Shown here: in pieces, positions 24,766-38,229 of the stretch | How the letters are laid out: each line of letters opens with the position of its first letter | Position numbering within the stretch: position 1 is the stretch's first letter | Source: Chloroflexota bacterium | Lineage (GTDB): Bacteria; Chloroflexota; Anaerolineae; Anaerolineales; Villigracilaceae | DNA: 39,629 nucleotides | NCBI GenBank assembly: GCA_016235425.1 | Contig: JACRLC010000007.1 | Span: 1-39,629 of the forward strand | Reading direction: 5' to 3' | The notes under the pieces: model-generated | Database searches by the model: none | The model's input: only the letters and a program-made list of their open reading frames with translations | Told to the model about the DNA's origin: nothing | Position numbers and translations under genes: made by a program

Positions 24766-25101
24766 GGATTATTTCTCCTGTTGGGAGATCAAATATGCAA
24801 CTCGTAAAATTTTCAAATCGTCGTAGTTCAATGCGCCGTTCAGTTTATCGTAAATCGGTTTGAGGTAGTACGCGCCGAGTTCCGCGAACGCAGCGAGCGC
24901 GGTCTGACGTTGTTCGGGCGTGGTGGATGAGAGCGATTCTACGTCCCCGTCTTTTCGCAGCGAATTGCCCGCCTGCGTGTATTTCATCAAGTGATCGAGG
25001 ATGGTTCCCATGGTAACCTGGTGGCTTTTCATCAAGGTTGGGATGGTGTCTCCCGCGTTGAAGGCCTGCGCGACGAGGCGCGTGCGTTCGGGGAGTTCGC
25101 C

Positions 25102-25183
25102 GCCCTCACCCCTAGCCCCTCTCCCGATGGGAGAGAGGGACGATGTTCCCCTCCCCCTTTGGGGGAGGGGTTGGGGGTGAGGG
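25102..25183. repeat. Repeat family C, double hairpin inserted in frame in recQ
   Basis: GCCCTCACCCC ... CCCTCTCCC-GAT-GGGAGAGAGGG ... CCCCTCCCCC-TTT-GGGGGAGGGG ... GGGGGTGAGGG. It is translated as P-H-P-Q-P-L-P-Q-R-G-R-G, a short spacer, then S-P-I-G-R-G-A-R-G-E-G-G between the HRDC domain and the C-terminal helix-turn-helix region, a place where a flexible linker is likely to be tolerated. Confidence 0.85.
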
Positions 25184-26629
25184 AGTTCCTTCAACCCATG
25201 CTTTTCGCAATACGCTTTGATGATCTCCAAAAACGTTTCGCCATATTGACCCAACTTCGCCTGCCCCACGCCAAAGATTTGCAGCAGGCTGTCATAAGAC
25301 TGCGGATAGAACGCCGCCATTTCCACGAGCGTCTTATCCGAGAAAATGACGTACGGCGGGACTCCCGCCTCGTCGGCCATCTCCTTGCGTTTTTGTCGCA
25401 GGATGGCAAACAGCGCGTGGTTGTATTCGACCTCCTCTTTTTTCCTGACCCGTTCCGCCTCTTGCAGGACGCCAAAAATGGGTTCCCGTTTCTTGAGCGC
25501 TTCCAACGCCTTGACCGTGAGACTCAGCGTGCGATACTCGCCTTCCTGCTTGAGGTATCCCATCGAAAGCAGTTGGCGGGCAAGGTGCATCCATTGCTTG
25601 TGCGACCATTCCGCGCCGATGCCGTAGGTGGACAGTTTGTCGTGACCCCAGCGCAGCACCTTCTCGTTCTTCGATCCGAGCAGGATATCAGTGATGTGAC
25701 CCGCGCCGAATTTCTCGCCCGCGCGTTTGACGCACGAGAGGAATTTTTGCGCGGGGATGGTGACGTCGGTCAGCGCGGCGGGGGCGGAGGTGCAGTTGTC
25801 GCAGTTGGAGCAGTTATCGGCGGAGTATGATTCGCCGAAGTATGCGAGCAGGGGCTTGCGGCGGCAGGTTGTTTCGTCCTCAGCGTAACTGACGATGGCG
25901 TTCAGATGCTGGACAGCGACGCGCCGCTCCTCCCCCTCCTTCTGGTCAATGAGGTAGTTGATCTTGGCGACATCGGAATAACTGTAAAGCAGGATGCAAT
26001 GCGCGGGCAGGCCATCGCGCCCCGAGCGGCCGATCTCCTGGTAATAGCCTTCGATGCTCTTTGGCAAATCGAACTGAATGACGAAGCGCACGTTGGGCTT
26101 GTTGATGCCCATCCCGAACGCGATGGTGGCGACGATCACCTGCGCGTCGTCGCGGATGAAGGCCTCCTGGTTCCGTTTTCGTTCGGCGTCCTCCAACCCC
26201 GCGTGATAGGAACGGGCGGAGTAGCCGCGCGAAACAAGGTACGCGGCGAGTTCGTCCACCTGCTTGCGCGAGAAACAATAAACGATGCCCGACTGATCCT
26301 TGTAGCGTTCGAGCATTTCGATGGTCTCCGTGATCGGGTCGCGTTTGCGGACGACTTCGATGTACAGGTTCTCGCGGTTGAAACTGGCGACGAACTCGTT
26401 CCTTGTGGCGAACTGGAGTGTGGAGCGGATGTCCTGCCGTACGTGCGCGGTGGCGGTGGCCGTCAGCGCGAGGCAGACCGCGCTTGGAAACTGTTTGCGG
26501 ACTTGCACGAGCTGGCGATACTTGGGGCGGAAGTCGTGGCCCCACTCCGAGATGCAGTGGGCTTCGTCAATCGTCAGGCAATGTGGTGATTACCCACATC
26601 TTTTACGCCCGCCAATTCCAGGGAAGAAA

Positions 26630-26718: not shown

Positions 26719-27006
26719 GCTTTGAGGCTTTGAATGACGTATGCGGACACGCCGAACGCGCGCAACTGCTCCACCTGGTCTTTCATCAACGAGATGAGCG
26801 GCGAGACGATGACGGTCAGCCCGTCGAAGAGGAGCGAGGGGATCTGGTAGCACAACGATTTCCCTCCGCCCGTCGGCATGACGGCTAGCGTGTCGCGGCG
26901 CGCCATCACGTTCTCGATTACTTCGCGCTGGAGCGGGCGGAAGGTATCGTAGCCGAAGGTTTATTTGAGGATGGAGGAGGGGGGTGGGCATGAGGGGGAC
27001 GTGGGG

Positions 27007-27029
27007 CGTGTTTCGTGTTGCGTGTTACG
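27007..27029. repeat. Repeat family A, intergenic copy between SWIM gene and recQ
   Basis: CGTGTTTCGTGTTGCGTGTTACG, starting 12 bases after the SWIM-gene stop on the coding strand. Leftmost copy of the family in the window. Confidence 0.8.
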
Positions 27030-27040
27030 TGGCGGGTTGG

Positions 27041-28786
27041 TTACAACTTGAGGTGGTTCAGTTCGCTTTGCAGGGCGGGGAGTTTTTTGTAGCGTTCGCG
27101 GATATCGGCGATGAGTTTGTCCCACGATGGCGCGTCGTTCAACTGGCGATAAATCTCCCGCGTTTCTCGAAGATATTGCGCGGCCTGCGAGTAATTTCCA
27201 CGGTCTCGATTGTCCATGATGCGCGCCGCCGCTTCTACATACAGGCGGATGGATTCCTGTGGGTATTGCGACTTTGCCGCCTGCGCGACTTCGATCTTCA
27301 ACGATTGAGACATCCATTGTTCGGGCATTTTGCCGAGCGCCGCAATCGCCAGTCCCACTTCTTTGTCGTGGAGATGGATTTGGACAAGCAAGCCGAAATC
27401 CTTTTTCTTCTCCAGTTCGGCGATGATCCGAGTCCGCAGTTCGTCCCATCGGTTGAGTTCTTTGGCGGGTTTGCGAAGTTTCTTGTATTGCTCGAGATTC
27501 GGGCGCGGCCAGAAAAGGCGTTCCTCCAATTGCAGCGATCCTGCCCAATCACCGCGTTCTTTGCGTCTTTCCGAAAGCCATTCCAGCAAGCGGGTATCTT
27601 TGATTTTTTCCAACCGCTCGGTTACAAGTTTTTCGGCGAGAGCCGCCTGTTTATGTTTGGTAAAAATTCCAAGCGTGTTGAGAAGCGGATAATCCTCCGC
27701 GCCCCTGGCGGCGTCCGCGGCCTCTTCGACCCTTTTGAGTTTGAGCAGGCGTTCGATGAGATCGTTCAAGCGTCCCGTTTGGCGGCAGATTTTCAAGTAG
27801 GCTTCATCATCGAGGGTGTCGGCTTCGATGTCGAGCAAGAACTTACCCAGGACTTCGCGACGGTAGTTGTCGCTCCACTCCTTGCCTTTTGGCATGATAT
27901 CGCGAACCCATTTTGCGATTTCGACGCGTTCTTCGGGCGTAGTTTTCGCTGTGAGAATTTCTGGCACAGAGTCCGCCGCGCCGACGCCGCCCGCTTGTAC
28001 GTCCCACTTGTACGCGCCGAACAACGCTTCCAGGATTTCACGTCTCTTTTTGGGGTCGTTGATTTTGGAGAGACAGGTTCCAAGCGCCTCCGCGCATTCG
28101 TGCGCGAGACCCAATAACTCCCCCTCTTCGTCTTGCATGGCTACCTCCTCATTGTCGAAAATGGTCTCGATGACGGTTGTGTAGATCGCGGCGGAATTTT
28201 CCGCATTGCCGCGAGCGAGGTAATCCGAGGCGAGGTTCAAGAGCGGTTGCAGGGAATGTTCGATCTCGCCCGTATAGCCATGGCCGCCCCATTCGTAATC
28301 CACGCCGCGAAACGCCTGCTGGGCTTGTCTGCGAATCGCTTTCATGTCCATTGGTGCGCTGTCCTCTGCGGAGAGTGGGAGATCGAGCAGGGATTCCAGG
28401 TCGGGTTCCTGCTCGAGCATTTGCTTGACGAGGGCGATCAATTCGGCTTTGGAGCGTTTTTCGAGCGCCGCGTCGAATGCTTCGATTTCCTGGAACGAAT
28501 CGGGGTCATTGACCCAGGTGAGCAGTAACGCGACGGCATGTTTGCAATGTCCGCCAGCGCCGACGGGACAAGAGCATTGCGCCGATTCGATTCCCTTGCT
28601 GTTGAATACCACTTCCTGGCGATAGAACGGCGCCTGCGAACCAGAGCATTTGGACTTAATTGTCATCCCCTGGCGGCGCTGTTCGTAGATGGCTCCGCCT
28701 GCGTAATACGATTGTCCGCGCTGAAAGTAAACGTCATCTGTCCAGTGGCGGATAGCGGATTCTGTGAGGCGTGGAATGGATGGCAT
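27041..28786 (-). CDS. SWIM zinc-finger protein
   Basis: 581 residues. The SWIM motif C-S-C-P-V-G-A-G-G-H-C-K-H gives C71-x-C73 and C81-x-H83, the zinc ligands. The N-terminus (I-R-H-W-T-D-D-V-Y-F-Q-R-G-Q-S-Y-Y-A-G-G) is the usual lead-in. After residue ~100 the protein is all helix with TPR-like repeats (A-S-D-Y-L-A-R-G-N-A-E-N-S-A-A-I-Y, Y-S-Q-A-A-Q-Y-L-R-E-T). SWIM domains bind DNA or protein; in bacteria they occur next to SNF2 helicases and in defence islands. ATG 28786 is chosen because the longer frame would run through the Wadjet terminator at 28827-28859. It lies between Wadjet and recQ on the same strand. Confidence 0.85.
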   Translation of the reverse strand: MPSIPRLTESAIRHWTDDVYFQRGQSYYAGGAIYEQRRQGMTIKSKCSGSQAPFYRQEVVFNSKGIESAQCSCPVGAGGHCKHAVALLLTWVNDPDSFQEIEAFDAALEKRSKAELIALVKQMLEQEPDLESLLDLPLSAEDSAPMDMKAIRRQAQQAFRGVDYEWGGHGYTGEIEHSLQPLLNLASDYLARGNAENSAAIYTTVIETIFDNEEVAMQDEEGELLGLAHECAEALGTCLSKINDPKKRREILEALFGAYKWDVQAGGVGAADSVPEILTAKTTPEERVEIAKWVRDIMPKGKEWSDNYRREVLGKFLLDIEADTLDDEAYLKICRQTGRLNDLIERLLKLKRVEEAADAARGAEDYPLLNTLGIFTKHKQAALAEKLVTERLEKIKDTRLLEWLSERRKERGDWAGSLQLEERLFWPRPNLEQYKKLRKPAKELNRWDELRTRIIAELEKKKDFGLLVQIHLHDKEVGLAIAALGKMPEQWMSQSLKIEVAQAAKSQYPQESIRLYVEAAARIMDNRDRGNYSQAAQYLRETREIYRQLNDAPSWDKLIADIRERYKKLPALQSELNHLKL

Positions 28787-28826
28787 GGCATGTTCCAAAG
28801 ATTGGGATGCGCGAATTATACAACTT

Positions 28827-28859
28827 AAACAAAATTGCCTTGTCAAAAATGGACAGGGC
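28827..28859 (-). terminator. Intrinsic terminator after jetD
   Basis: On the minus strand GCCCTGTC-CATTTTT-GACAAGGC followed by AATTTTGTTT. The 8-bp stem (one G-U pair) and U-run lie about 30 bases after the jetD stop and separate the Wadjet operon from the SWIM gene. It resembles the hairpins at 23.53 and 37.75 kb. Confidence 0.8.
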
Positions 28860-28865
28860 AAAAGA

Positions 28866-28880
28866 GAGCAGCGTGTTGCG
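28866..28880. repeat. Repeat family A, partial copy after jetD
   Basis: CAGCGTGTTGCGCGG, a half-length copy between the jetD stop and its terminator. Confidence 0.45.
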
Positions 28881-28889
28881 CGGGGTGAC

Positions 28890-30146
28890 TTATGTGGTTG
28901 GCGGATAGATGGCTTCCTGCTCCAATTTTAAGCCGCGCTTGAGGAGATGTTCAATGACGGGACGAACGTCGCGAAGTTCGGAGCGGAGGAGCAGGCGTTT
29001 GAGGTTGACGCGGTCGGATGCAGTGAGAGGGCGCGCGCAGCGAATGTTGGATTCGAGGGTTTCGATGTCCATCAAATACGGTTGTACTTGTTCGCCAACT
29101 GTTCGGCGCAGTTGACTCAAGATGTTGAATCCGCCGTAGTCCAAATCTGGCCAAAGGTAAATCGGCACACTTTCAGGCAGAAGTCGGAGTACGCGTCTTA
29201 CGGCGGGAGATGGATTGCCGTAGGTGCAGAGGAGGGCTTGTTGCGTGTTTCGTGTTGCGTGTTCCGTTTGGCGGGTAAATTGATGAAAGGTGGTGAGATT
29301 TTCGATGCAGAGGACGGATTCGGCGCGGACAGATCGGAGGGAGGATGTTTGGGCAGCAGGGAATCCAACCGATGGAGTGAAGCCACTCAGGTTGAGAATT
29401 TCGCCGTCCTCGGTGGTGAGTTCCCAGTTTCCAGAAAGATGGATGTAGTTTGGATTGGCAACGAGATTCAATTCGCGCAGAACTTCTTCAGCGGGGATTC
29501 GTTTCCATTCGGGGTTGCCGAGGCGGGCGAGGCTGACGAGTTGACGTTTAATGGCTTCGAGTCGTTTGCTGTTGTTGAAGACGCGCACGCTGAAGACGCG
29601 GTAGGGAGTCTCTGCTGTCAGGGCGGGTAAGGCTTGTAAAACGGCGAGCAGGTCAAGGGTCAGGTTTGAATCGGTGAGGCTGAACGGCGCGGGAGATTTT
29701 TCAGCTTTGAGTTGGTTCAGGATGTAATTAATCGCGCGGCCGCGCCAGTCATCCTGAAAGCGAAATTTGTCGGCGAGGAGCAGTTGTTCGAGATGGGTAC
29801 GTCGGTTGGCGAGGGGAATTCGATTGAGGAGGGTGTAGAGCGTGTTGCGTGTTGCGTGTTCCGTTAGTTTGACGGATTGGAGGATGTGACCTTTTTCGCC
29901 TGGGAGCCAAGTGAGTTGGATGAGGTTGGCGCGTTCGAGAATTTGGAGTTGTTCGTTGGCGATGAGGCGCGGGGTTGGATCTGTTTGCGAAAAATAATTC
30001 GGGAGGGGGAGAGCGGTGAGGGTGACTTTGATGCTTCTATGTTGCGTGTTGCGTGTTCCGTTTTCGGAGGGACGGCGTTCGAGGACGTCGAGCAAGGCAT
30101 TCAGCGCGACACTTACATCAGGCGATGGGACAAAAGGCACTTCCAT
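28890..30146 (-). CDS. jetD: Wadjet protein JetD (DUF3322 + TOPRIM/DUF2220 nuclease), three repeat-A insertions
   Basis: 418 residues. The N-terminal DUF3322 half begins S-P-D-V-S-V-A-L-N-A-L-L; the C-terminal half is a TOPRIM domain with E282 (V-L-C-I-E-N) and D334-x-D336 (Y-L-W-P-D-L-D-Y-G-G-F), the metal-binding residues of topoisomerase VI-like nucleases. JetD is the subunit that cleaves plasmid DNA trapped by the JetABC motor. Repeat A is translated at residues 28-37 (S-E-N-G-T-R-N-T-Q-H), 94-102 (L-T-E-H-A-T-R-N-T) and 292-302 (Q-T-E-H-A-T-R-N-T-Q-Q); the last is inside the TOPRIM fold, between the E and D-x-D strands. The active-site residues are kept. Last gene of the operon, 111 bases after jetC. 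Confidence 0.92.
   Translation of the reverse strand: MEVPFVPSPDVSVALNALLDVLERRPSENGTRNTQHRSIKVTLTALPLPNYFSQTDPTPRLIANEQLQILERANLIQLTWLPGEKGHILQSVKLTEHATRNTLYTLLNRIPLANRRTHLEQLLLADKFRFQDDWRGRAINYILNQLKAEKSPAPFSLTDSNLTLDLLAVLQALPALTAETPYRVFSVRVFNNSKRLEAIKRQLVSLARLGNPEWKRIPAEEVLRELNLVANPNYIHLSGNWELTTEDGEILNLSGFTPSVGFPAAQTSSLRSVRAESVLCIENLTTFHQFTRQTEHATRNTQQALLCTYGNPSPAVRRVLRLLPESVPIYLWPDLDYGGFNILSQLRRTVGEQVQPYLMDIETLESNIRCARPLTASDRVNLKRLLLRSELRDVRPVIEHLLKRGLKLEQEAIYPPTT
29240..29269. repeat. Repeat family A inside jetD (TOPRIM domain)
   Basis: GTTGCGTGTTTCGTG then TTGCGTGTTCCGTTT. Coding strand gives T-E-H-A-T-R-N-T-Q-Q (first frame), residues 292-302 of JetD. Confidence 0.9.
29841..29867. repeat. 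Repeat family A inside jetD (middle)
   Basis: CGTGTTGCGTGTTGCGTGTT then CCGTTAG, 27 bases. Coding strand gives L-T-E-H-A-T-R-N-T (first frame), residues 94-102. Confidence 0.9.
30040..30064. repeat. Repeat family A inside jetD (N-terminal)
   Basis: GTTGCGTGTTGCGTGTTCCG then TTTT. Coding strand gives N-G-T-R-N-T-Q-H (second frame), residues 28-37. Confidence 0.9.
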
Positions 30147-30159
30147 TTTTCACTCAACC

Positions 30160-30257
30160 AAACGGAACACGCAACACGGGTCTCGACACCTGCACTTGCG
30201 TCAGGTACAAGTGTACGCAGCGAACACTACTCGACCACCGACACGTAACACGCAACA
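30160..30257. repeat. Composite repeat (A + E + A) filling the jetC-jetD gap
   Basis: AACGGAACACGCAACACGGG, then GTCTCGACACC, a variable middle, CTACTCGACCACCGAC, and ACACGTAACACGCAACATT touching the jetC stop codon. It is the inverse orientation of the composite inside jetC (31911-32018), with the same flanking modules and a different middle. It fills nearly all of the 111 bases between the two genes. Confidence 0.85.
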
Positions 30258-33200
30258 TTATTCTTTTTCCAACTTCTCAATCATCTCGCTCTTGTCAATA
30301 CCAATCACAAACGAATGATTATTTTTGCGGACGACGGTGCAGACGCTATCCACATACGGGAGGAGCGAACCTGATTTGTCGGGCGGGGTGGCTAAAAGGA
30401 CTTGCAGTCCCGCTTCTCGCATGAAGTGGAGCGCGCTGGCGGTGCGGGCGGTGTCCATTTTGCCGAAGGCTTCGTCGAAGAGGGCAAGCCGAATGGTATC
30501 GGAAGGGCGAGCCTGGTTGAGGCGATAGGCTTGGGCGAACGACGCCGCCATCGCAACGTAAAAGGGCGTGGTGGTTTCGCCGCCGCTTTTCTTGGCGTTG
30601 ATTTGACTCAGTAAAGCGCGGTCGCCGTTGGGGTAATGAATGCGGATGTCATATTGCAGGTAGTTGCGGTAATCCTGCAATTCGCGCAGTTCAGCGTTTT
30701 CATCGTCGTGCGCGCTGGTGAGACGCTCGAAGAGTAAGTCCCAGCCCTGTTGATGTTTCTGGCGGAAGTCCGATTCAAAAAGTGAATCGCCCATCATTTG
30801 TTGGCTGTCCATCACCATGTCGAAGACCTGGCGCAGGGCGGGCGCGGGCTGGTTGATGAACTCAAAACGTTCGCCGCCGAAGCGCAGGTTGGCAAGCGTG
30901 CCGTTGAGAAACGCGAGTTGCTGGCGCGCGTCTTCGATTTGCTCGCGCAGGCGATGGATGAAGTTTTCGACGAGTTCCTGTTCGGCGAGGCCGCGTTGGT
31001 GGGCGATTTGGGTTTCGTAGTTGGGCAACTCTGAGGTGATGAGTTTTTCTTTTTCAGCCATGTAGCGTGTTGCGTGTTCCGTTTCGTCGGTGGCGAAGTC
31101 GTAGCGAAGAGAATATGCGAGTTTCGCTTCGCGCAGGCGGTCGCGCGAGCGCTGCTCGGCGGTCTGGTAGTCGTTTTCATAACGGCTGGCATTTTGCAAG
31201 ATCACTTCGAGTGGCTGGCGTTCGCGGCGGCGTTCGTATTCTTTTTGGACATCGGACTTGGTTTCCTCGTCGGCGTTTTCCTGGATGATAAAAGACTCTG
31301 CGCTTCGGATGGATTCGTCTGCGCTTCTTTCCAAGCCTGGGATGGATTCCGTTTCGATTTGCTTGATCTTCTCTTCGAGATTTCCCAGTCTCCGCTCGAA
31401 GGTCGCGACTTCGCTTTGCAACTGGTCGCGCTCGCGCTGATATTTTTCCATGTCGGCTTTGAGCGTTTCGACGGTATGAGTGTCGAGCGCGGCGAGTTCT
31501 TTGGTGAGTGTTGCGTGTTGCGTGTTCCGTTCGGGGAGGAGGGCGAGGGCTTCGAGGGCGTGCTCGAGTTCGATGAGCGGGCGGATTTTGTCGCGCGTGA
31601 GGGCGAGACGTTCACGCAGGGCGGTCTCGCGTTTGTTGAGATTCTTCAGCTCGTCTGCGATTTCGTCAATGCGGGTTTCTCGTTGTTCGATCTGACGCGG
31701 CGCGGCGCGCTCGCCGATGAACCAGCGTTTGTAGACCTGCGGGTTGAGGTGGCTGTCGGTGAAGTTGCGGCGGACGAAACATTCCTGGGTGATGGCGGTT
31801 CGATGGGAGCGGAGTCCTTCGATGGAGTCGCATTTGATGTAGTGACCGAGGAGCAGGTCAACGTAGGCGCGGGCGGCAGGGTTATCGGTAACGGCTTCGG
31901 AGGAAAGAGTCTCGTGTTGCGTGTTGCGTGTTCCGTCGGTGGTCGAGTAGCCCTGAGCGCTCTTGTTCTTTGCGAAGGGCGTATCGAGACCCGTATTGCG
32001 TGTTGCGTGTTCCGTTTTTTGTTGGAGGATGGATTCGGTATCGAGGAGGGTCGCGCCATGTATCGTGTCTTTGTATTTTCGGTAGAGTTGCATGGCGGTG
32101 TCGTAATGGGCGGGCGGGACAAGTAACACAAAGCGATTGAATCCAAGAATACCTTCGATGGCGTTTTGCCATTCGGGATCAGGGATTTGGAGAACGTCGC
32201 AGAGATAAACGACTTCGTTCGCGCCGAGTCCAAGTTCGGCGCGCAGGATTTCGCGCAGGCGGGAGGTGTGAGGCGCTTCCACTTTGACAGAGGCTTCGCG
32301 GTCGCCTGTGCGGAGTTTGCGGATTTCATCTTCGAGTTTGGCGGCTTCGGCTTTGAGTTGATTTGCCTGTTCGTTTAGTAAGGTTTGTTCGCGGGAATAG
32401 GTTTCGCCGAGGATGGCAAGGGACTCTTGCGTGTTGCGTATTGCGTGTTCCGTGTCTACCTGTTTACCTGTGTACTTGTCTACTTTTCCCGTGTTGCGTG
32501 TTTCGTGTTCCGTTAGGAAGGCGGAGAGCGCAGAGGGGATTTCGAGTTTGTCGGAGGCGAGAAGTTTTTTGAGTTTTTTGGCGTCGGTGAGTTCGGCGGC
32601 GAGGGAGCGGTCGAAATCGGATTGGCGTTGGGTGAGGAGAGTCAGTTCGGCGGAGAGGGAGGCGAGTTTGTCGCGGAGTTCCTTTTCGCGCTGGGCGGTC
32701 TGGTCGGTGCGGAGGGCGATCTCAGCGTCGGTCAAGGCCGATTGGGCAAATCGCAGGTTGCGGGTGAGGTCGTCGCGCTGAATCTCGTCGCGGTGAAATT
32801 CCAGTTTGGTGGAGTCCAGTTCGAGGCGGCGCGATTTCAAGTCATCCAGAAAAACATCCGCCTGGGCGCGGCGGGCGACGTAGGTGTTGGTGACGCGGCG
32901 ACGGCGATTGGAGAGGCGTTCCTTGTCGAGGTCTTCGACGTTGGTGAGGGACGTGATGCGCTCGCGGACATCGGCGGCGAGGGATTCAAAATGGCGCAGG
33001 GTTTCGAGTTGGGCTTGCAGGGTTTTGACATCCAGCAGATTTTCGTCAAGCAGATAATTGTGGACGAAGGAGCGGATGTCGGTGAGCGGGCTGAAGGCGA
33101 GACCCTTGACGATTTTGGCGGGGAAGGTATCCTTGAGTTGGCCGAGGCGGTTGAGCAGGTGAACGCGGTAATCTTCGAGGCGGGTGAAGACGCGGGCGCT

Positions 33201-33686
33201 GGCATTGGGCGGCAGGGCAAAATTTTCGAGATGGCGTTTGAAGGCGCGCGTGTCGAAGAGTTGACCTGGGGCTTTGAAGAACCAGTTATCGTTGAGCGCG
33301 GCGTTGTGAACGATGAAATATGCCACGTCGGGATTGCGCCTGTCTTCGTAGGCGTCAATGACCGCGCCATGCGCGAAAAATGTCCCATCGGGATTTTTGA
33401 ATTCGAGGGCAACGACTCCTGTCGCGTCGCCGCGCAAATAGCGCTGACCTTCCGTGCCGAGTTCGCCGCGCACATAGCTGGCGAGAGTCCGCTTGCCACC
33501 GCTGAGTGCGGCTTGGTTGAATCTCACATCACGCTGACCGCCAACGAGGGCAAATTGAACCGCGTCCAACACGGTGGATTTCCCTGCACCATTGATACCA
33601 ATGAAGTAGGTTGTGCCCTGGCAGTTAATGGTGGTGTTTTCAAAAAGATGCCAGTTTACGAGGCGAATTCGGGTTAAGAGTTTCAT
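30258..33686 (-). CDS. jetC: Wadjet protein JetC (SMC/MukB-like ATPase), six repeat-A insertions
   Basis: 1142 residues. Walker A G-I-N-G-A-G-K-S-T at residues 30-38, a long charged coiled coil, and Walker B L-A-L-F-D-E-A-F-G-K-M-D with D1071-E1072, as in the condensin-like ATPase of type I Wadjet. The JetABC complex extrudes DNA loops and recognises small closed circles. Repeat A is translated at about residues 391-420 (two copies around K-V-D-K-Y-T-G-K-Q-V-D), 557-592 (composite with repeat E), 719-727 (E-R-N-T-Q-H-A-T) and 867-875 (T-E-H-A-T-R-Y). All lie between the two ATPase halves, in the arms or near the hinge, where insertions are most easily tolerated. The ATPase motifs are intact. 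The start overlaps the jetB stop by ATGA. Confidence 0.93.
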   Translation of the reverse strand: MKLLTRIRLVNWHLFENTTINCQGTTYFIGINGAGKSTVLDAVQFALVGGQRDVRFNQAALSGGKRTLASYVRGELGTEGQRYLRGDATGVVALEFKNPDGTFFAHGAVIDAYEDRRNPDVAYFIVHNAALNDNWFFKAPGQLFDTRAFKRHLENFALPPNASARVFTRLEDYRVHLLNRLGQLKDTFPAKIVKGLAFSPLTDIRSFVHNYLLDENLLDVKTLQAQLETLRHFESLAADVRERITSLTNVEDLDKERLSNRRRRVTNTYVARRAQADVFLDDLKSRRLELDSTKLEFHRDEIQRDDLTRNLRFAQSALTDAEIALRTDQTAQREKELRDKLASLSAELTLLTQRQSDFDRSLAAELTDAKKLKKLLASDKLEIPSALSAFLTEHETRNTGKVDKYTGKQVDTEHAIRNTQESLAILGETYSREQTLLNEQANQLKAEAAKLEDEIRKLRTGDREASVKVEAPHTSRLREILRAELGLGANEVVYLCDVLQIPDPEWQNAIEGILGFNRFVLLVPPAHYDTAMQLYRKYKDTIHGATLLDTESILQQKTEHATRNTGLDTPFAKNKSAQGYSTTDGTRNTQHETLSSEAVTDNPAARAYVDLLLGHYIKCDSIEGLRSHRTAITQECFVRRNFTDSHLNPQVYKRWFIGERAAPRQIEQRETRIDEIADELKNLNKRETALRERLALTRDKIRPLIELEHALEALALLPERNTQHATLTKELAALDTHTVETLKADMEKYQRERDQLQSEVATFERRLGNLEEKIKQIETESIPGLERSADESIRSAESFIIQENADEETKSDVQKEYERRRERQPLEVILQNASRYENDYQTAEQRSRDRLREAKLAYSLRYDFATDETEHATRYMAEKEKLITSELPNYETQIAHQRGLAEQELVENFIHRLREQIEDARQQLAFLNGTLANLRFGGERFEFINQPAPALRQVFDMVMDSQQMMGDSLFESDFRQKHQQGWDLLFERLTSAHDDENAELRELQDYRNYLQYDIRIHYPNGDRALLSQINAKKSGGETTTPFYVAMAASFAQAYRLNQARPSDTIRLALFDEAFGKMDTARTASALHFMREAGLQVLLATPPDKSGSLLPYVDSVCTVVRKNNHSFVIGIDKSEMIEKLEKE
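31062..31087. repeat. Repeat family A inside jetC (residues ~867-875)
   Basis: TAGCGTGTTGCGTGTTCCGT then TTCG. Coding strand gives D-E-T-E-H-A-T-R-Y (first frame). Confidence 0.88.
31507..31531. repeat. Repeat family A inside jetC (residues ~719-727)
   Basis: AGTGTTGCGTGTTGCGTGTT then CCGTTC. Coding strand gives P-E-R-N-T-Q-H-A-T-L, the only copy read in the third frame. Confidence 0.88.
31911..32018. repeat. Composite repeat (A + E + A) inside jetC
   Basis: Two A modules (31911-31937 and 31991-32018) flank a repeat-E element (31938-31992) with GGTGGTCGAGTAGCCC and GGGCGTATCGAGACC as its inverted ends. The 108 bases are 36 codons, read D-G-T-R-N-T-Q-H-E-T on one side, T-E-H-A-T-R-N-T-G on the other, with Y-S-T-T in the middle. 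The two A modules are in different frames relative to each other. Confidence 0.9.
32426..32515. repeat. Two repeat-A copies with a linker inside jetC
   Basis: 32426-32454 (T-E-H-A-I-R-N-T-Q) and 32490-32515 (T-E-H-E-T-R-N-T-G), joined by TCTACCTGTTTACCTGTG and following bases, itself a small tandem of T-A-C-C-T-G-T-like units. Total 90 bases, 30 codons, no frame change. Confidence 0.88.
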
Positions 33687-34315
33687 GGTTGTTCATCATC
33701 ACTTTCGACTTCAACGTCACCCGCTCGATATTTTCGTAGCCAGGCCTCTAACTCTGTGGCGGATTGGATGGGAAGAATGAGACGAACAGAGCCGCGCAGG
33801 CGCAATCGGGCTTCGGCGTCGCGTACATCTATGTTGCGGCCGTCAATGGTGTCAATCAAGCCGATGGAGCGCAGGCGGCGCAGGAGGGTTTCGTATTGTC
33901 CCATGCCGAGGTCGCGTTCCTTGCCTGTGATGGTGCGGTATTCTTCGCGGACTTCACCGATGGTGACGACAGGGTCGCTGGCGAGGCTGAGATGTTCGAT
34001 CTTGTCTTCGTAGAGTTTGCGGAGGACGACGATCATCAGGCTTTCGTCCAGTTTGTAGCGGGCGCGGCTGTAACTGTAGTCGGATACAACCTGGAAGATG
34101 CGGTGATAGTCATCGTGCAGGAGGTTGAAGCCTGTGAGCGCGAGAACCGATTCAAACACGGCGCGATGGCGATGAACGAAGTAATAATCATCCTTGTCGT
34201 CGTTCACATCCTGGTAGAGGAAGGATTGTCCGAGCAGGCGATTGACGATGCGCGGGAAGTCGCGGCGGGATTTTTCGGGGATGTCTTGGAGGAGATTGTC
34301 TTGAGGGAGGGTCAT
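33683..34315 (-). CDS. jetB: Wadjet protein JetB (DUF4194, MksE-like)
   Basis: About 210 residues, the kleisin-associated (KITE-like) winged-helix subunit of type I Wadjet. Visible features: I-V-N-R-L-L-G-Q-S-F-L-Y, D-D-Y-Y-F-V-H-R-H-R-A-V-F-E-S-V, and the winged-helix part E-R-D-L-G-M-G-Q-Y-E-T-L-L-R-R-L-R-S-I-G-L-I. An acidic tail (D-V-E-V-E-S-D-D-E) closes it. It contacts JetA and JetC in the complex. It has no repeat insertion. ATG 34315 is the likely start; the longer frame would read back into repeat A. The stop overlaps the jetC start by ATGA. Confidence 0.88.
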   Translation of the reverse strand: MTLPQDNLLQDIPEKSRRDFPRIVNRLLGQSFLYQDVNDDKDDYYFVHRHRAVFESVLALTGFNLLHDDYHRIFQVVSDYSYSRARYKLDESLMIVVLRKLYEDKIEHLSLASDPVVTIGEVREEYRTITGKERDLGMGQYETLLRRLRSIGLIDTIDGRNIDVRDAEARLRLRGSVRLILPIQSATELEAWLRKYRAGDVEVESDDEQP

Positions 34316-34348
34316 GGTGGTTTCCAGAATTATGTTGATGGAGGAAAC

Positions 34349-34373
34349 GTGTTGCATGTTGCGTGTTCCGTTG
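34349..34373. repeat. Repeat family A between jetA and jetB
   Basis: CGTGTTGCATGTTGCGTGTT then CCGTT, in the same orientation as the in-gene copies. Confidence 0.8.
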
Positions 34374-34412
34374 GATATGCTTTGCGATATGGAGCGTGGT
34401 GCGGGAGGGGAA

Positions 34413-34435
34413 GAAAACGGAACACGCTACACGAG
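34413..34435. repeat. Repeat family A, inverted copy next to the jetA stop
   Basis: AAAACGGAACACGCTACACG then AG, directly after the jetA stop on the coding strand. Together with 34349-34373 it forms an inverted pair around the jetA-jetB gap. Confidence 0.8.
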
Positions 34436-35893
34436 TTAAAGTTTGACAAGGTCGAAGGGTACGACCCGATAACAGCCAACTTGAATAGGTTCGCCATCAT
34501 TGATCTCCAGCCCATAACTGACTTCGGGGTGATGGGCGTAGGCGATGATGGTTGTTAACCAGTGCAGGTCGTAGCGGATGGGGATTTCGGTGATGGGCAT
34601 GCGTTTGTGTCCGTTGAAGAAAGTCATGACTTTGCGATTGACTTTTTCGGGAGAGAAGGCTTGGGTCACATCCTGCATGGTCAAGGCATGGAGCGCGGCG
34701 AAATCGTCAGGGTGGAGGGTAGGGACGATGATGGAATCGGGGGTGAAGGGAGCGCGACGTTGGGGCGGGGTGTAGAAGCTTTTGAGGTCGGGGAGGCGGA
34801 TGGGGGAGTGGAGGAACGTGTTGCGTGTTCCGTGTTCCGTTTCGGGTGGCGTGGTTTCAGGGAGTTCTTCGAGGCCTTCATCGCGGAGGGCGGAGAGATG
34901 TTGGGCGAGGGAGATAAGTCTGTCTTTGAAACTGCCATCAGCGTTGCCGAGTTTGTAGCGGATCTGGCGGAAGGAGGTACGCAAGTATTGCGCATGGCGG
35001 GCGTCAATGTCGGCGAGGAGGGGGTCGAGGCCTTCGAGTTGATTGGAGATGAACCGCAGGGAATGGATGATTTCATGTTCGGCTTGCGCGGGCGAGAGGC
35101 AGCTTTGCGTCGCGAGTTCTTCGGCGGTGTGGGCAATCCATTCGTCGTCCACCAGCCAGGCCTGGATTTGATTCACAATGTCGCGACGGTAACGCGAGAC
35201 GTGGTCGGAGGTTTTCAGGGCGTGGTAGGCGGGTCCGAGGGTTTGGGTGTAATCATCGAATTGCAGGCGCAGGAGGTCGGCGACTTCCATTTTCTTTGTC
35301 GCACGTTCGACGTAGCGGCGGATGTTCTGGTTCAGTTCGTTGAGTCCGCGCACGACCTGGCGGATATTTTCGTAGGTCTGCGAGACGGCGAGGGTGGGGG
35401 AAAAGTCTTTGTGCGTTTTGGCGGAAGTGATGAGTTGGTGCGCGGCGTAGAGTTGTCCCTTGAACTCGCGCGGCTTTTGTTCCTGGATGGAGCGGAAGGC
35501 TTCGAGCAAGGTGAAGGCGTAGTCGGGCAGGATGATGGTCTCGGAGTAGTCGGCGTGTTGCTCGCGTTCGATCCAACCTGAGTCGGCGAGGCGGCGGATG
35601 AGGTAGGCGGCGTAGTACTGTTCGGGCTTGGATCCAGCCAATGACGCTGAGTCCGCTTCGGGGTCGGCCTGATTCGCCATGTCCGTCTGAATCTCGCGTT
35701 CGGCGTCGGAATCCTTAATGTAGTCCACGATCTCCGCGATGACCGTCTCGCGAGCGAGGCCAAAGCGGTTGAACTCGGCGAGGCTGTAGATGCGGATGAG
35801 GATCGCCATGTAGTGCCGCTGGAGGCTGGCGAAACCGACGGTGGTGAAGATGTTGAAGAGGTTGAGGGGGAGGATGTCAAACGGATTCGGCAC
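34436..35893 (-). CDS. jetA: Wadjet protein JetA (DUF3375, MksF-like), one repeat-A insertion
   Basis: About 485 residues, the kleisin-like subunit of type I Wadjet. The N-terminal winged helix begins P-F-D-I-L-P-L-N-L-F-N-I-F-T-T-V-G-F-A and L-Q-R-H-Y-M-A-I-L-I-R-I-Y; the middle is helical; the C-terminus is a small beta domain (V-G-C-Y-R-V-V-P-F-D). Repeat A is read at residues ~351-360 (T-E-H-G-T-R-N-T) in a linker before the final domain. I choose GTG 35893 because it keeps the N-terminal winged helix and lies 17 bases inside the regulator gene, so translation can be coupled; ATG 35809 is the alternative. Confidence 0.88.
   Translation of the reverse strand: MPNPFDILPLNLFNIFTTVGFASLQRHYMAILIRIYSLAEFNRFGLARETVIAEIVDYIKDSDAEREIQTDMANQADPEADSASLAGSKPEQYYAAYLIRRLADSGWIEREQHADYSETIILPDYAFTLLEAFRSIQEQKPREFKGQLYAAHQLITSAKTHKDFSPTLAVSQTYENIRQVVRGLNELNQNIRRYVERATKKMEVADLLRLQFDDYTQTLGPAYHALKTSDHVSRYRRDIVNQIQAWLVDDEWIAHTAEELATQSCLSPAQAEHEIIHSLRFISNQLEGLDPLLADIDARHAQYLRTSFRQIRYKLGNADGSFKDRLISLAQHLSALRDEGLEELPETTPPETEHGTRNTFLHSPIRLPDLKSFYTPPQRRAPFTPDSIIVPTLHPDDFAALHALTMQDVTQAFSPEKVNRKVMTFFNGHKRMPITEIPIRYDLHWLTTIIAYAHHPEVSYGLEINDGEPIQVGCYRVVPFDLVKL
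34816..34843. repeat. Repeat family A inside jetA
   Basis: CGTGTTGCGTGTTCCGTGTT then CCGTTTC. Coding strand gives E-T-E-H-G-T-R-N-T (first frame). Confidence 0.9.
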
Positions 35894-36128
35894 GTTCGGC
35901 CTCCCAGACGAGGATGTCGTGCAGATCGCAGTTGAGCGCAACGCACAGACGGGCGAGGGCGTCGAGGTCAACGTGGCGGGCCGCGCCCGAGTCGAGGCGG
36001 TAGACGAAATCTTTCGGGACGCCCGCCTTCTCGGCGAGTTTGCGCGGGGAGACGCGTTCGCCCGTGGCGGCCTGGTGTTTGCCGAGCAGGATGGTGATTC
36101 GGCCAGATGTCGTAATTTTAGAACTCAT
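35877..36128 (-). CDS. Xre/Cro-type regulator heading the Wadjet operon
   Basis: 83 residues, one helix-turn-helix: R-V-S-P-R-K-L-A-E-K-A-G-V-P-K-D-F-V-Y-R-L-D-S-G, then V-D-L-D-A-L-A-R-L-C-V-A-L-N-C-D-L-H-D-I-L, the standard HTH_3/HTH_26 form. There is no further domain, so any signal sensing must be through DNA or a partner. It overlaps jetA by 17 bases. A strong inverted repeat is centred on its start codon, which suggests that it represses its own promoter and the whole jet operon. Confidence 0.9.
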   Translation of the reverse strand: MSSKITTSGRITILLGKHQAATGERVSPRKLAEKAGVPKDFVYRLDSGAARHVDLDALARLCVALNCDLHDILVWEAERAESV

Positions 36129-36141
36129 GTTCTAATTTTAC
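36112..36141. promoter_or_regulatory. Operator-like inverted repeat centred on the regulator start codon
   Basis: Plus strand TTAGAAC-TCAT-GTTCTAA as the perfect core; the full arms are 13 bases (36112-36124 and 36129-36141) with two mismatches. The 4-base centre contains the start codon of the Xre-type gene. The AT-rich arms stand out from the GC-rich surroundings. Binding here would block transcription start or early elongation. Confidence 0.75.
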
Positions 36142-36189
36142 GGGCAGGTGGAGGTTTTGTCAAGAGGTTTGGCGAGGAAATGGGACAGG

Positions 36190-36213
36190 TGTAGCGTGTT
36201 GCGTGTTCCGTTA
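36190..36213. repeat. Repeat family A at the stop codon of the DUF1841-like gene
   Basis: TGTAGCGTGTTGCGTGTTCC then GTTA. On the coding strand the stop TAA runs directly into CGGAACACGCAACACG. Rightmost copy of the family. Confidence 0.85.
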
Positions 36214-37898: not shown

Positions 37899-38170
37899 AA
37901 TTCCAAATATGAACTAATCAGGGAATAGAACTGCGGGAAAAAGAAAACTCCAAGCCCTCATTCTGGAAGAATGGAGGCTTAGGTAGTCGTCAAGGATAGG
38001 GAAATTAGGCGGATTGGAATCAGAAAATAGCGAAAATTCCAAATATGAACTAATCAGGGAATAGAACTGCGGGAAAAAGAAAACTCCAAGCCCTCATTCT
38101 GGAAGAATGGAGGCTTAGGTAGTCGTCAAGGATAGGGAAATTAGGCGGATTGGAATCAGAAAATAGCGAA
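37899..38170. repeat. 136-base perfect tandem duplication in the IS left end
   Basis: Copy 1 is 37899-38034, copy 2 is 38035-38170; they start AATTCCAAATATGAACTAAT and end AAAATAGCGAA and appear identical. Each has the hairpin CCTCATTCT-GGA-AGAATGGAGG. The second copy has only six bases of the ten-base IS tip. Confidence 0.93.
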
Positions 38171-38229
38171 AGCAAGAACGTGAGTTGAACTTGCAGTCGC
38201 AATAGGAAACAGGGAAAGTGCGTCAGATG

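What the first reader, a model, noticed from the sequence alone, without database searches (positions are those of the whole stretch)
27001..36213. A short repeat is inserted ten times, in frame, within the Wadjet genes and is confined to this locus
The unit AACGGAACACGCAACAC (coding strand) occurs about 17 times from 27.0 to 36.2 kb and I found none in the other 30 kb. Ten copies lie inside jetA (1), jetC (6) and jetD (3) without shifting the frame. They are read in all three frames (seven as T-E-H-A-T-R-N-T, two as G-T-R-N-T-Q-H, one as R-N-T-Q-H-A-T), so the conserved object is the DNA, not a peptide. The unit has no stop codon in any of six frames, which suits a protein-invading element like the Rickettsia palindromic elements. 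All ten in-gene copies have the same orientation, whereas inverted copies occur only between genes.
Basis: partly seen in the sequence, partly recalled or inferred. Interest (0 to 1): 0.88.

Follow-up and report, generated by a model that had tools for sequence, protein, structure and literature searches.

The report
Seven-base repeats invading Wadjet defence genes
A seven-base tandem repeat found across these bacterial genomes has entered the loops of the Wadjet anti-plasmid proteins far more often than other genes, in several separate lineages, adding short water-loving peptides without breaking the reading frame.

Summary
The repeat is real, but its true unit is seven bases, (ACGNAAC)n, usually n=3. 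The window holds 16 arrays, all at 27.0-36.2 kb; 10 lie inside jetA (1), jetC (6) and jetD (3), all on the coding strand, read in three frames. It is not confined to this locus: of 96 near-matches in the 5.0 Mb genome, 76 lie elsewhere; arrays found there are mostly between genes (54 of 79), with 17 sense copies in 15 other predicted genes. Homologues show that 8 of the 10 in-gene copies lie in length-variable regions and fit insertion; 2 lie at sites of constant length and are not insertions. The strand bias has a simple explanation: sense frames encode hydrophilic peptides, antisense frames hydrophobic, cysteine-containing ones (15 Wadjet loci: 69 sense, 2 antisense). What stands out is a recurrent Wadjet hot spot: 30- to 455-fold enrichment in the 8 genomes where a ratio was computed (six genera, two families), and an association of heptad-rich genomes with Wadjet (9 of 15 versus 12 of 286 others) not seen for PglZ. 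Best reading: a new heptanucleotide variant of known small dispersed repeats. Why Wadjet is the hot spot is open.

The parts
27010..27030 (-). heptad array, 3 units, between genes
29240..29267 (-). heptad array, 4 units, in jetD (TEHATRNTQ, residues 294-303); length-variable region
29844..29864 (-). heptad array, 3 units, in jetD (TEHATRN, residues 95-101); length-variable region
30041..30061 (-). heptad array, 3 units, in jetD (GTRNTQH frame, residues 29-35); length-variable region
30162..30175 (+). heptad array, 2 units, between jetD and jetC; left flank of a REP-like module
30179..30239 (+). REP-like module C (GGTCTCGA...TCGACCACC) between direct heptads, between genes
   Evidence: read from the sequence
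30243..30256 (+). heptad array, 2 units, between jetD and jetC; right flank of the module
31062..31082 (-). heptad-like stretch in jetC (TEHATRY, residues 869-875); NOT an insertion, homologues have the same length
31510..31530 (-). heptad array in jetC (RNTQHAT frame, residues 719-726); NOT an insertion, homologues have the same length
31909..31936 (-). heptad array in jetC (GTRNTQHET, residues 584-593); length-variable region
31938..31991 (-). REP-like module C inside jetC, in frame, between two heptad arrays
31995..32015 (-). heptad array in jetC (TEHATRN, residues 558-564); length-variable region
32426..32453 (-). heptad array in jetC (TEHAIRNTQ, residues 412-421); length-variable region
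32453..32483 (-). module B, 8-bp-period repeat (within GKVDKYTGKQVD) inside jetC between two heptad arrays
32493..32513 (-). heptad array in jetC (TEHETRN, residues 392-398); length-variable region
34351..34371 (-). heptad array at the start of the jetB ORF, probably upstream of the true start; 3' arm of a hairpin
34417..34430 (+). inverted heptad array between jetA and jetB; 5' arm of the hairpin in the mRNA
   Evidence: fold z-score -5.4
34820..34840 (-). heptad array in jetA (TEHGTRN, residues 378-384); 9 codons longer there than five repeat-free homologues
36191..36211 (-). heptad array at the stop codon of the DUF1841 gene
28890..30146 (-). jetD (Wadjet type I nuclease subunit)
30258..33686 (-). 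jetC (SMC-like ATPase), open frame with P-loop and Walker B domain matches
33683..34357 (-). jetB
34436..35971 (-). jetA

Best explanation
This is one copy-rich locus of a dispersed family of small modular repeats in Anaerolineales-type Chloroflexota. The core module is a tandem heptanucleotide, (ACGNAAC)n. It sits between genes, partly as inverted pairs that can fold into hairpins, and also inside genes, where it is often next to or nested with other modules (an 8-bp-period repeat and REP-like palindromes). New copies arise in host genomes where the family is active, by a copying process not identified here (transposition in trans, template switching or short-patch conversion). Inside genes, selection keeps mainly copies that preserve the frame, lie in loops, and read on the sense strand, because all sense frames encode a hydrophilic stop-free peptide and all antisense frames a hydrophobic, cysteine-containing one. 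The Wadjet operon is a recurrent hot spot, most likely because loops of JetC, JetD and JetA tolerate inserts and because copies already there promote nesting and conversion. Shown: anatomy, dispersal, orientation, length-variable positions by alignment, recurrence in Wadjet. Inferred: the copying process, selection as the cause of orientation, and tolerance as the cause of the hot spot.
For: Seven-bp period and 16 arrays. Dispersal: 76 of 96 near-matches outside the window contig; 79 arrays in the stretches fetched there: 54 between genes, 5 at gene edges, 17 sense and 3 antisense inside predicted genes, with 12 inverted neighbour pairs among the 59 not inside genes. Genes hit include a P-type ATPase, MazG, an SbcC-like gene (two copies), TrpE and an MrfA-like helicase. 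Three inverted pairs fold well (z -5.4, -7.1, -3.5). Eight of ten window copies at length-variable regions, the same regions in different genera filled with different modules. In 15 heptad-bearing Wadjet loci 69 sense and 2 antisense in-gene arrays (the 69 include the doubtful jetB one), codon positions 33/18/18, hydropathy -2.0 to -2.4 sense against +1.6 to +1.9 antisense. Enrichment of 30- to 455-fold in the 8 genomes where a ratio was computed. Heptad load of Wadjet follows that of its host genome, Spearman 0.70, 19 genomes, hand-made subtraction. Open frames and Pfam domains in the window genes.
Against: No mobilising enzyme was found: none of 14 Y1-transposase loci in 4 genomes has a heptad array nearby. 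No target-site duplication was defined; the closest JetC homologues differ by 12% or more. Two of ten in-gene copies are not insertions. Loop tolerance alone hardly explains why no other gene of the own genome was seen with more than two copies, nor why Wadjet presence goes with genome-wide abundance. Two heptad-rich genomes (G039, G077) have Wadjet genes without heptads, and G025, with one weak array in Wadjet, has its two listed genome hits elsewhere. The AlphaFold models are poor (mean pLDDT 51 and 47), so loop position rests on alignment and predicted secondary structure.
Confidence: 0.6

Rival explanations
1. Adaptive loop diversification: the insertions are kept because changed surface loops of JetA, JetC and JetD escape plasmid- or phage-borne inhibitors, so the repeat family supplies variation and selection concentrates it in Wadjet.
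For: The same regions are filled with different modules in different genera; strong recurrent enrichment in Wadjet.
Against: 8 of 23 Wadjet loci examined have no heptads at all, so the inserts are dispensable; heptads are also common between or beside the jet genes, where no protein loop is at stake (39 of 110 arrays); no inhibitor was looked for or is known here.
Confidence: 0.15
2. Vehicle: a heptad-laden Wadjet locus moves by horizontal transfer and seeds the repeat family in new genomes.
For: Patchy Wadjet distribution (21 of 301); heptad-rich genomes have Wadjet more often (9 of 15 against 12 of 286), also within the family after removing hits in Wadjet.
Against: Wadjet heptad load follows the host rather than the Wadjet lineage: close JetC relatives in heptad-poor hosts (G292, G304) have 1 and 2 in-gene arrays, while the distant G100 locus in the richest host has 7 in jetC and jetD; four genomes with at least 25 hits lack this JetC.
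Confidence: 0.12
3. Wadjet activity itself makes the repeats: breaks or stalled loops caused by the complex are repaired with short template-switched copies, so the repeat marks Wadjet action on the host chromosome.
For: Genome-level association seen for Wadjet and not for the one control, PglZ.
Against: Heptads abound in genomes without this JetC (G283, G296, G117, G094) and no hit was found in several with it (G049, G059, G065, G209). Wadjet is known to spare the chromosome (recalled knowledge).
Confidence: 0.06
4. Ordinary coding sequence that looks like the repeat by chance or convergence.
For: Two jetC sites are length-preserving and grade into repeat-free homologues.
Against: 0.16 matches are expected against 29 found; eight sites have length changes; the same DNA occurs between genes and in three codon frames.
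Confidence: 0.04
5. A DNA uptake sequence or similar recognition signal, as in Neisseria or Haemophilus, enriched in genome-maintenance genes and paired as terminators.
For: Inverted pairs between genes and copies in DNA-related genes such as SbcC-like and Wadjet; the parallel is recalled from general knowledge.
Against: About a hundred matches per rich genome, tandem, variable in unit number and sequence, unlike a fixed single-copy uptake word with far more copies (recalled).
Confidence: 0.03

Closest known systems
Rickettsia palindromic elements (RPE)
   Same: Small repeats found in frame in many unrelated genes and between genes, adding peptides to proteins (PMC10969869, passages seen; PMC3733652, passages and section 15 read).
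   Different: RPEs are given there as about 150 bp, each encoding a conserved peptide; here a 14-56 bp tandem heptad read in three frames, with copies piled up in one defence operon.
GTAG/CGTC-tagged REP elements and REPINs
   Same: Short repeats, often dimers, mostly between genes and sometimes inside ORFs, many of them DNA-repair genes, once at about the same site in recB of two Xanthomonas species (PMC3733652, section 15 read). The nested module C is REP-like by eye.
   Different: The heptad is a tandem repeat of period 7 and no Y1 transposase lies beside it in the loci examined.
Dispersed heptanucleotide tandem repeats of Nostoc, Calothrix and Xanthomonas (STRR; that name is recalled)
   Same: Tandem units of seven bases dispersed through the genome and mainly between genes (PMC4692102, passages seen).
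   Different: Those studied there are G-rich and under-represented on the coding strand inside ORFs; this one has no T in the G000 sense unit, is not G-run based, and is almost always on the coding strand when inside a gene.
Small dispersed repeats (SDR) of cyanobacteria, Elhai et al. 2008
   Same: Very small mobile repeats (seen only as cited in passages of PMC3116915 and PMC4390886; the paper itself is not held).
   Different: No sequence relation was examined; a target site for the heptad is not known.
Wadjet type I (JetABCD)
   Same: The host operon: all four genes match PADLOC JetA1, JetB1, JetC1 and JetD1.
   Different: The repeats are an addition to the operon, absent from 8 of 23 homologous loci examined.

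Membership tests
REP/REPIN with RAYT | palindromic or paired inverted copies between genes | tested here: inconclusive
   12 inverted neighbour pairs among 59 arrays not inside genes in the own genome, three pairs fold with z -3.5 to -7.1; but many arrays are single and not palindromic
REP/REPIN with RAYT | a cognate Y1 (RAYT) transposase flanked by the repeat | tested here: not met
   14 Y1 loci in G000, G015, G024 and G294, none with a heptad array within about 1.5 kb; four bare half-sites of module C were seen at three of them and not followed
REP/REPIN with RAYT | single unit of 20-40 bp rather than a short tandem | tested here: not met
   Period 7, 2-8 units
RPE-like protein-invading element (works like) | in-frame insertion inside unrelated genes, absent in homologues | tested here: met
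   8 of 10 window copies in length-variable regions; copies in 15 other predicted genes, whose homologues were not aligned
RPE (as a Rickettsia family) | an RPE family sequence, palindrome of about 150 bp | tested here: not met
   Arrays of 14-28 bp in the window, not palindromic singly; no comparison with RPE sequences was run
Dispersed heptanucleotide repeat (STRR) | tandem seven-base units dispersed in the genome, mainly between genes | tested here: met
Dispersed heptanucleotide repeat (STRR) | avoidance of the coding strand inside ORFs | tested here: not met
   69 sense against 2 antisense in Wadjet genes; 17 against 3 in other predicted genes. The trait is from PMC4692102 and may not define the kind
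MITE | terminal inverted repeats with target-site duplication | tested here: inconclusive
   No duplication could be defined; nearest homologues too diverged
DNA uptake sequence | fixed short word with very high copy number | tested here: not met
   About 100 matches, variable unit and length; the defining trait is recalled
Wadjet type I | jetA, jetB, jetC and jetD together, with ATPase and Toprim domains | tested here: met
Wadjet type I | restriction of plasmids | not testable with these tools
   needs an experiment

The most novel reading that the evidence does not exclude
The heptad family and Wadjet are functionally coupled: Wadjet, or the repair of its products, promotes creation or retention of heptads, or heptads in Wadjet loops are adaptive, so that presence of Wadjet predicts genome-wide heptad load and the operon is the hot spot in unrelated genera. 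The association, its absence for the one control PglZ and the 30- to 455-fold enrichment do not exclude this.
Probability: 0.12. Interest if true: 0.9.

Novelty: new variant of a known kind. Interest (0 to 1): 0.6.

Why it matters
Small repeats that decorate proteins are known, but a seven-base tandem repeat that repeatedly piles up in one plasmid-defence machine in several genera did not appear in the listings of the ten literature searches made (open-licence papers only). It gives a natural insertion-tolerance map of JetA, JetC and JetD, and a testable question: does a defence operon collect repeats because it tolerates them, because it benefits from loop variation, or because of its own DNA activity?

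Tried and rejected
Rejected: confinement to the locus; all ten copies as insertions; defence-gene specificity in the own genome, since other in-gene copies are in housekeeping or mixed genes; mobilisation by a neighbouring Y1 transposase; a fixed uptake word; frame constraint as the cause of the three-unit mode, because three units is also the commonest number outside genes (33 of 69 in genes, 19 of 39 outside).

Led nowhere: solved structures by sequence (no matches); AlphaFold models of JetD and JetC with 8 and 9 sequences, too poor for a fold search, so none was run; other heptad-dense stretches in G030, G024, G015, G296 and G294, where 17 of 29 arrays in L114-L119 and L147-L151 outside Wadjet, by my reading, are not inside predicted genes or only at an edge, and 5 of the 29 would have to be recounted if edges are treated otherwise. 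The synonymous-site test was weak: over all pairs the first jetC site was not above background (0.58 against 0.57); only heptad-bearing rows gave 0.80 against 0.58 (top 3.5% of windows), a selected subset; the second site gave 0.70 (top 8%).

Caveats on counts: searches use numbers typed by hand; the hits subtracted for the own Wadjet were rough and equal to or larger than those measured. One search's correlation used other rough subtractions, some smaller than measured (G030, G294). Genomes share ancestry, so Fisher p-values are not corrected for phylogeny, and PglZ is the only control family. Genome sizes other than G000 are rounded. Wadjet stretches were bounded by hand. Gene calls come from a simple codon-usage script. 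Stretches were fetched for 75 of the 76 listed places outside the window contig (C101:14923 was left out); a few listed places did not reach the array threshold. Two overlapping duplicate loci (L027, L028) were dropped before the count. In one search the jetA rows of L067 and G059 and the jetB row of L069 were empty or a few residues long because my start point was wrong; they were not counted. Several Wadjet loci are cut by contig ends (G030, G205, G100, G294, G135, G025, L072). Some genomes appear under two names (L067=G292, L070=G304, L073=G294, L068=G025); each was counted once. Genome-wide counts are not known for L066, L069, L071 and L072. Of the others with heptads in Wadjet, ratios were computed for 8; in G292 and G304 the Wadjet stretch holds 3 and 1 hits where the genome counts are 3 and 1; in G025 both listed hits lie on other contigs.
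Full report
What is there. TRF finds period 7. A unit scan gives 16 arrays in the window, all between 27,010 and 36,211; the 17-mer at up to 3 mismatches gives 29 matches against 0.16 expected. The host operon is a complete Wadjet type I system, jetA-jetB-jetC-jetD, on the minus strand.

Not confined. The own genome (G000, 5.0 Mb) has 96 matches at up to 2 mismatches, 76 of them outside the window contig. I fetched stretches for 75 of those 76 places and found 79 arrays in them: 54 between genes, 5 at gene edges, 17 sense and 3 antisense inside predicted genes (some gene calls are weak). Among the 59 not inside genes there are 12 inverted neighbour pairs. The 15 genes with sense copies include a P-type ATPase, MazG, a DegT aminotransferase, TrpE, an SbcC-like protein with two copies, an MrfA-like helicase and a 2-oxoacid dehydrogenase acyltransferase (ten of the proteins were scanned). 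So the repeat is not specific to defence. Wadjet is still the outlier: no other gene seen has more than two.

Insertions or not. I aligned JetA-D with relatives from the same order and with eight named Chloroflexota MAG loci, six with JetC 83-88% identical and two 73-74%. Eight of ten copies fall in regions whose length varies between homologues: the jetA copy, two pairs in jetC and three in jetD. The other two jetC copies (residues 719-726 and 869-875) lie where repeat-free homologues have the same length and related residues, for example ERETQRAA or DADDAARY; these are resident codons that came to match the heptad, by conversion or by chance.

Modular nesting. In jetC one pair of heptad arrays flanks a REP-like module (GGTCTCGATACG...CTACTCGACCACC, 31,938-31,991) and another pair flanks an 8-bp-period repeat read within GKVDKYTGKQVD. 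The same module type stands between two direct heptads between jetD and jetC. Relatives carry other combinations in the same regions, including a CCCTGAGC...GTCGAAGGG palindrome in jetD of G005. These regions therefore collect several repeat families.

Orientation. In 15 heptad-bearing Wadjet loci, 71 arrays lie in jet genes (one of them the doubtful jetB start): 69 sense and 2 antisense, the latter as one arm of an inverted pair in jetD of G015 and G294; 39 more lie between or beside the genes. Unit starts fall on codon positions 33, 18 and 18 times. The three sense frames encode TEHATRN, RNTQHAT and GTRNTQH repeats (mean hydropathy -2.0 to -2.4); the antisense frames encode VACCVFR, LRVACSV and CVLRVPC types (+1.6 to +1.9). 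Selection against hydrophobic, cysteine-containing loops explains the bias without any special mechanism; that is an inference.

The Wadjet hot spot. Using one 17-base pattern at up to 1 mismatch, I compared hits in the Wadjet stretch with the rest of each genome: G000 26 of 120 (148-fold), G015 24 of 66 (149), G024 7 of 68 (78), G030 5 of 29 (102), G005 4 of 8 (455), G294 10 of 138 (92), G205 4 of 36 (196), G100 13 of 272 (30). These eight lie in six genera and two families. Two heptad-poor genomes have all their few hits in Wadjet (G292 3 of 3, G304 1 of 1); G025 has neither of its 2 hits there. The loci come from a JetC search, not from a repeat search, but ratios were computed only for loci with heptads. 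Eight other Wadjet loci have none, including two in heptad-rich genomes, G039 and G077, also when an ACGNAAT variant is allowed. The load inside Wadjet follows that of the host genome (Spearman 0.70, p 0.0008, 19 genomes, rough subtraction of own hits), which points to acquisition in the host rather than carriage by the operon.

Genome-level association. In 301 genomes sampled from the order, 15 have at least 20 hits and 21 have this JetC at E<=1e-50: 9 of 15 against 12 of 286 (Fisher p 2e-8). Within the own family (69 genomes) it is 6 of 9 against 5 of 60 (p 3e-4), and a size-stratified permutation after subtracting Wadjet hits gives p 0.0014. PglZ, a patchy defence-linked domain, shows no link (1 of 15 against 36 of 286, p 0.7). 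Shared ancestry is not corrected for, and only one control family was run.

Structure and function. The window's jetC and jetD keep open frames and their Pfam domains. The AlphaFold models are of low confidence, but the copies fall in or beside predicted breaks between helices or strands. Three inverted pairs fold into strong hairpins in RNA (z -5.4, -7.1, -3.5); the direct-heptad composite at 30,150-30,262 does not stand out (z 0.2). Whether the peptides are made is not shown.

Comparison with what is known. In-frame small repeats are known from Rickettsia (PMC10969869, passages) and from REP elements in several species, often in DNA-repair genes and once at about the same site in two species (PMC3733652, section 15). 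Dispersed heptanucleotides are known from Nostoc and Xanthomonas (PMC4692102, passages). This family works like an RPE and is built like those heptanucleotide repeats. It is not a REP/RAYT system by the tests done here: period 7, and 14 Y1 transposase loci have no heptads beside them. It is best called a new variant of a known kind, with an unexpected and repeated concentration in Wadjet.

Noticed in passing
window 37899-38171: Perfect tandem duplication of 136 bp (two copies, 100% matches), upstream of the Wadjet operon.
   Followed up: no
window 24769-26508: RecQ-family gene whose match starts at position 155 of the RecQ profile, so the first helicase lobe seems missing or encoded elsewhere.
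   Followed up: no
window 27041-28861: SWIM zinc-finger protein matching the PADLOC candidate family PDC-S62; distant homologues (24-28% identity) also sit beside Wadjet in G024, G025 and L069.
   Followed up: partly
window 32453-32483; also jetC or jetD of G005, G024, G030, and L080, L093: A second protein-invading repeat with period 8, read as QVDKYTGKQVD or similar, often directly beside heptads in genes and between genes.
   Followed up: partly
G005 jetD (L057): A CCCTGAGC...GTCGAAGGG palindrome is read in frame within a jetD loop as PALSTVEG.
   Followed up: no
L119:2442-2487 (G024): An inverted heptad pair lies inside a predicted 5-kb gene, a possible hairpin in coding sequence.
   Followed up: no
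L147 (G296) and L150 (G294): Two genomes seem to share heptad arrays at the same between-gene positions of a gene run that looks syntenic by gene lengths alone, suggesting vertical inheritance of some copies.
   Followed up: no
G242:C1:2367566-2368051 and 2965070-2965555: Two equal-length fragments of JetC (residues 928-1089, 89% identical to the query) lie about 0.6 Mb apart in one genome.
   Followed up: no
G077:C323:5187-8456: JetC homologue with one in-frame TGA, in a heptad-rich genome whose Wadjet has no heptads.
   Followed up: no
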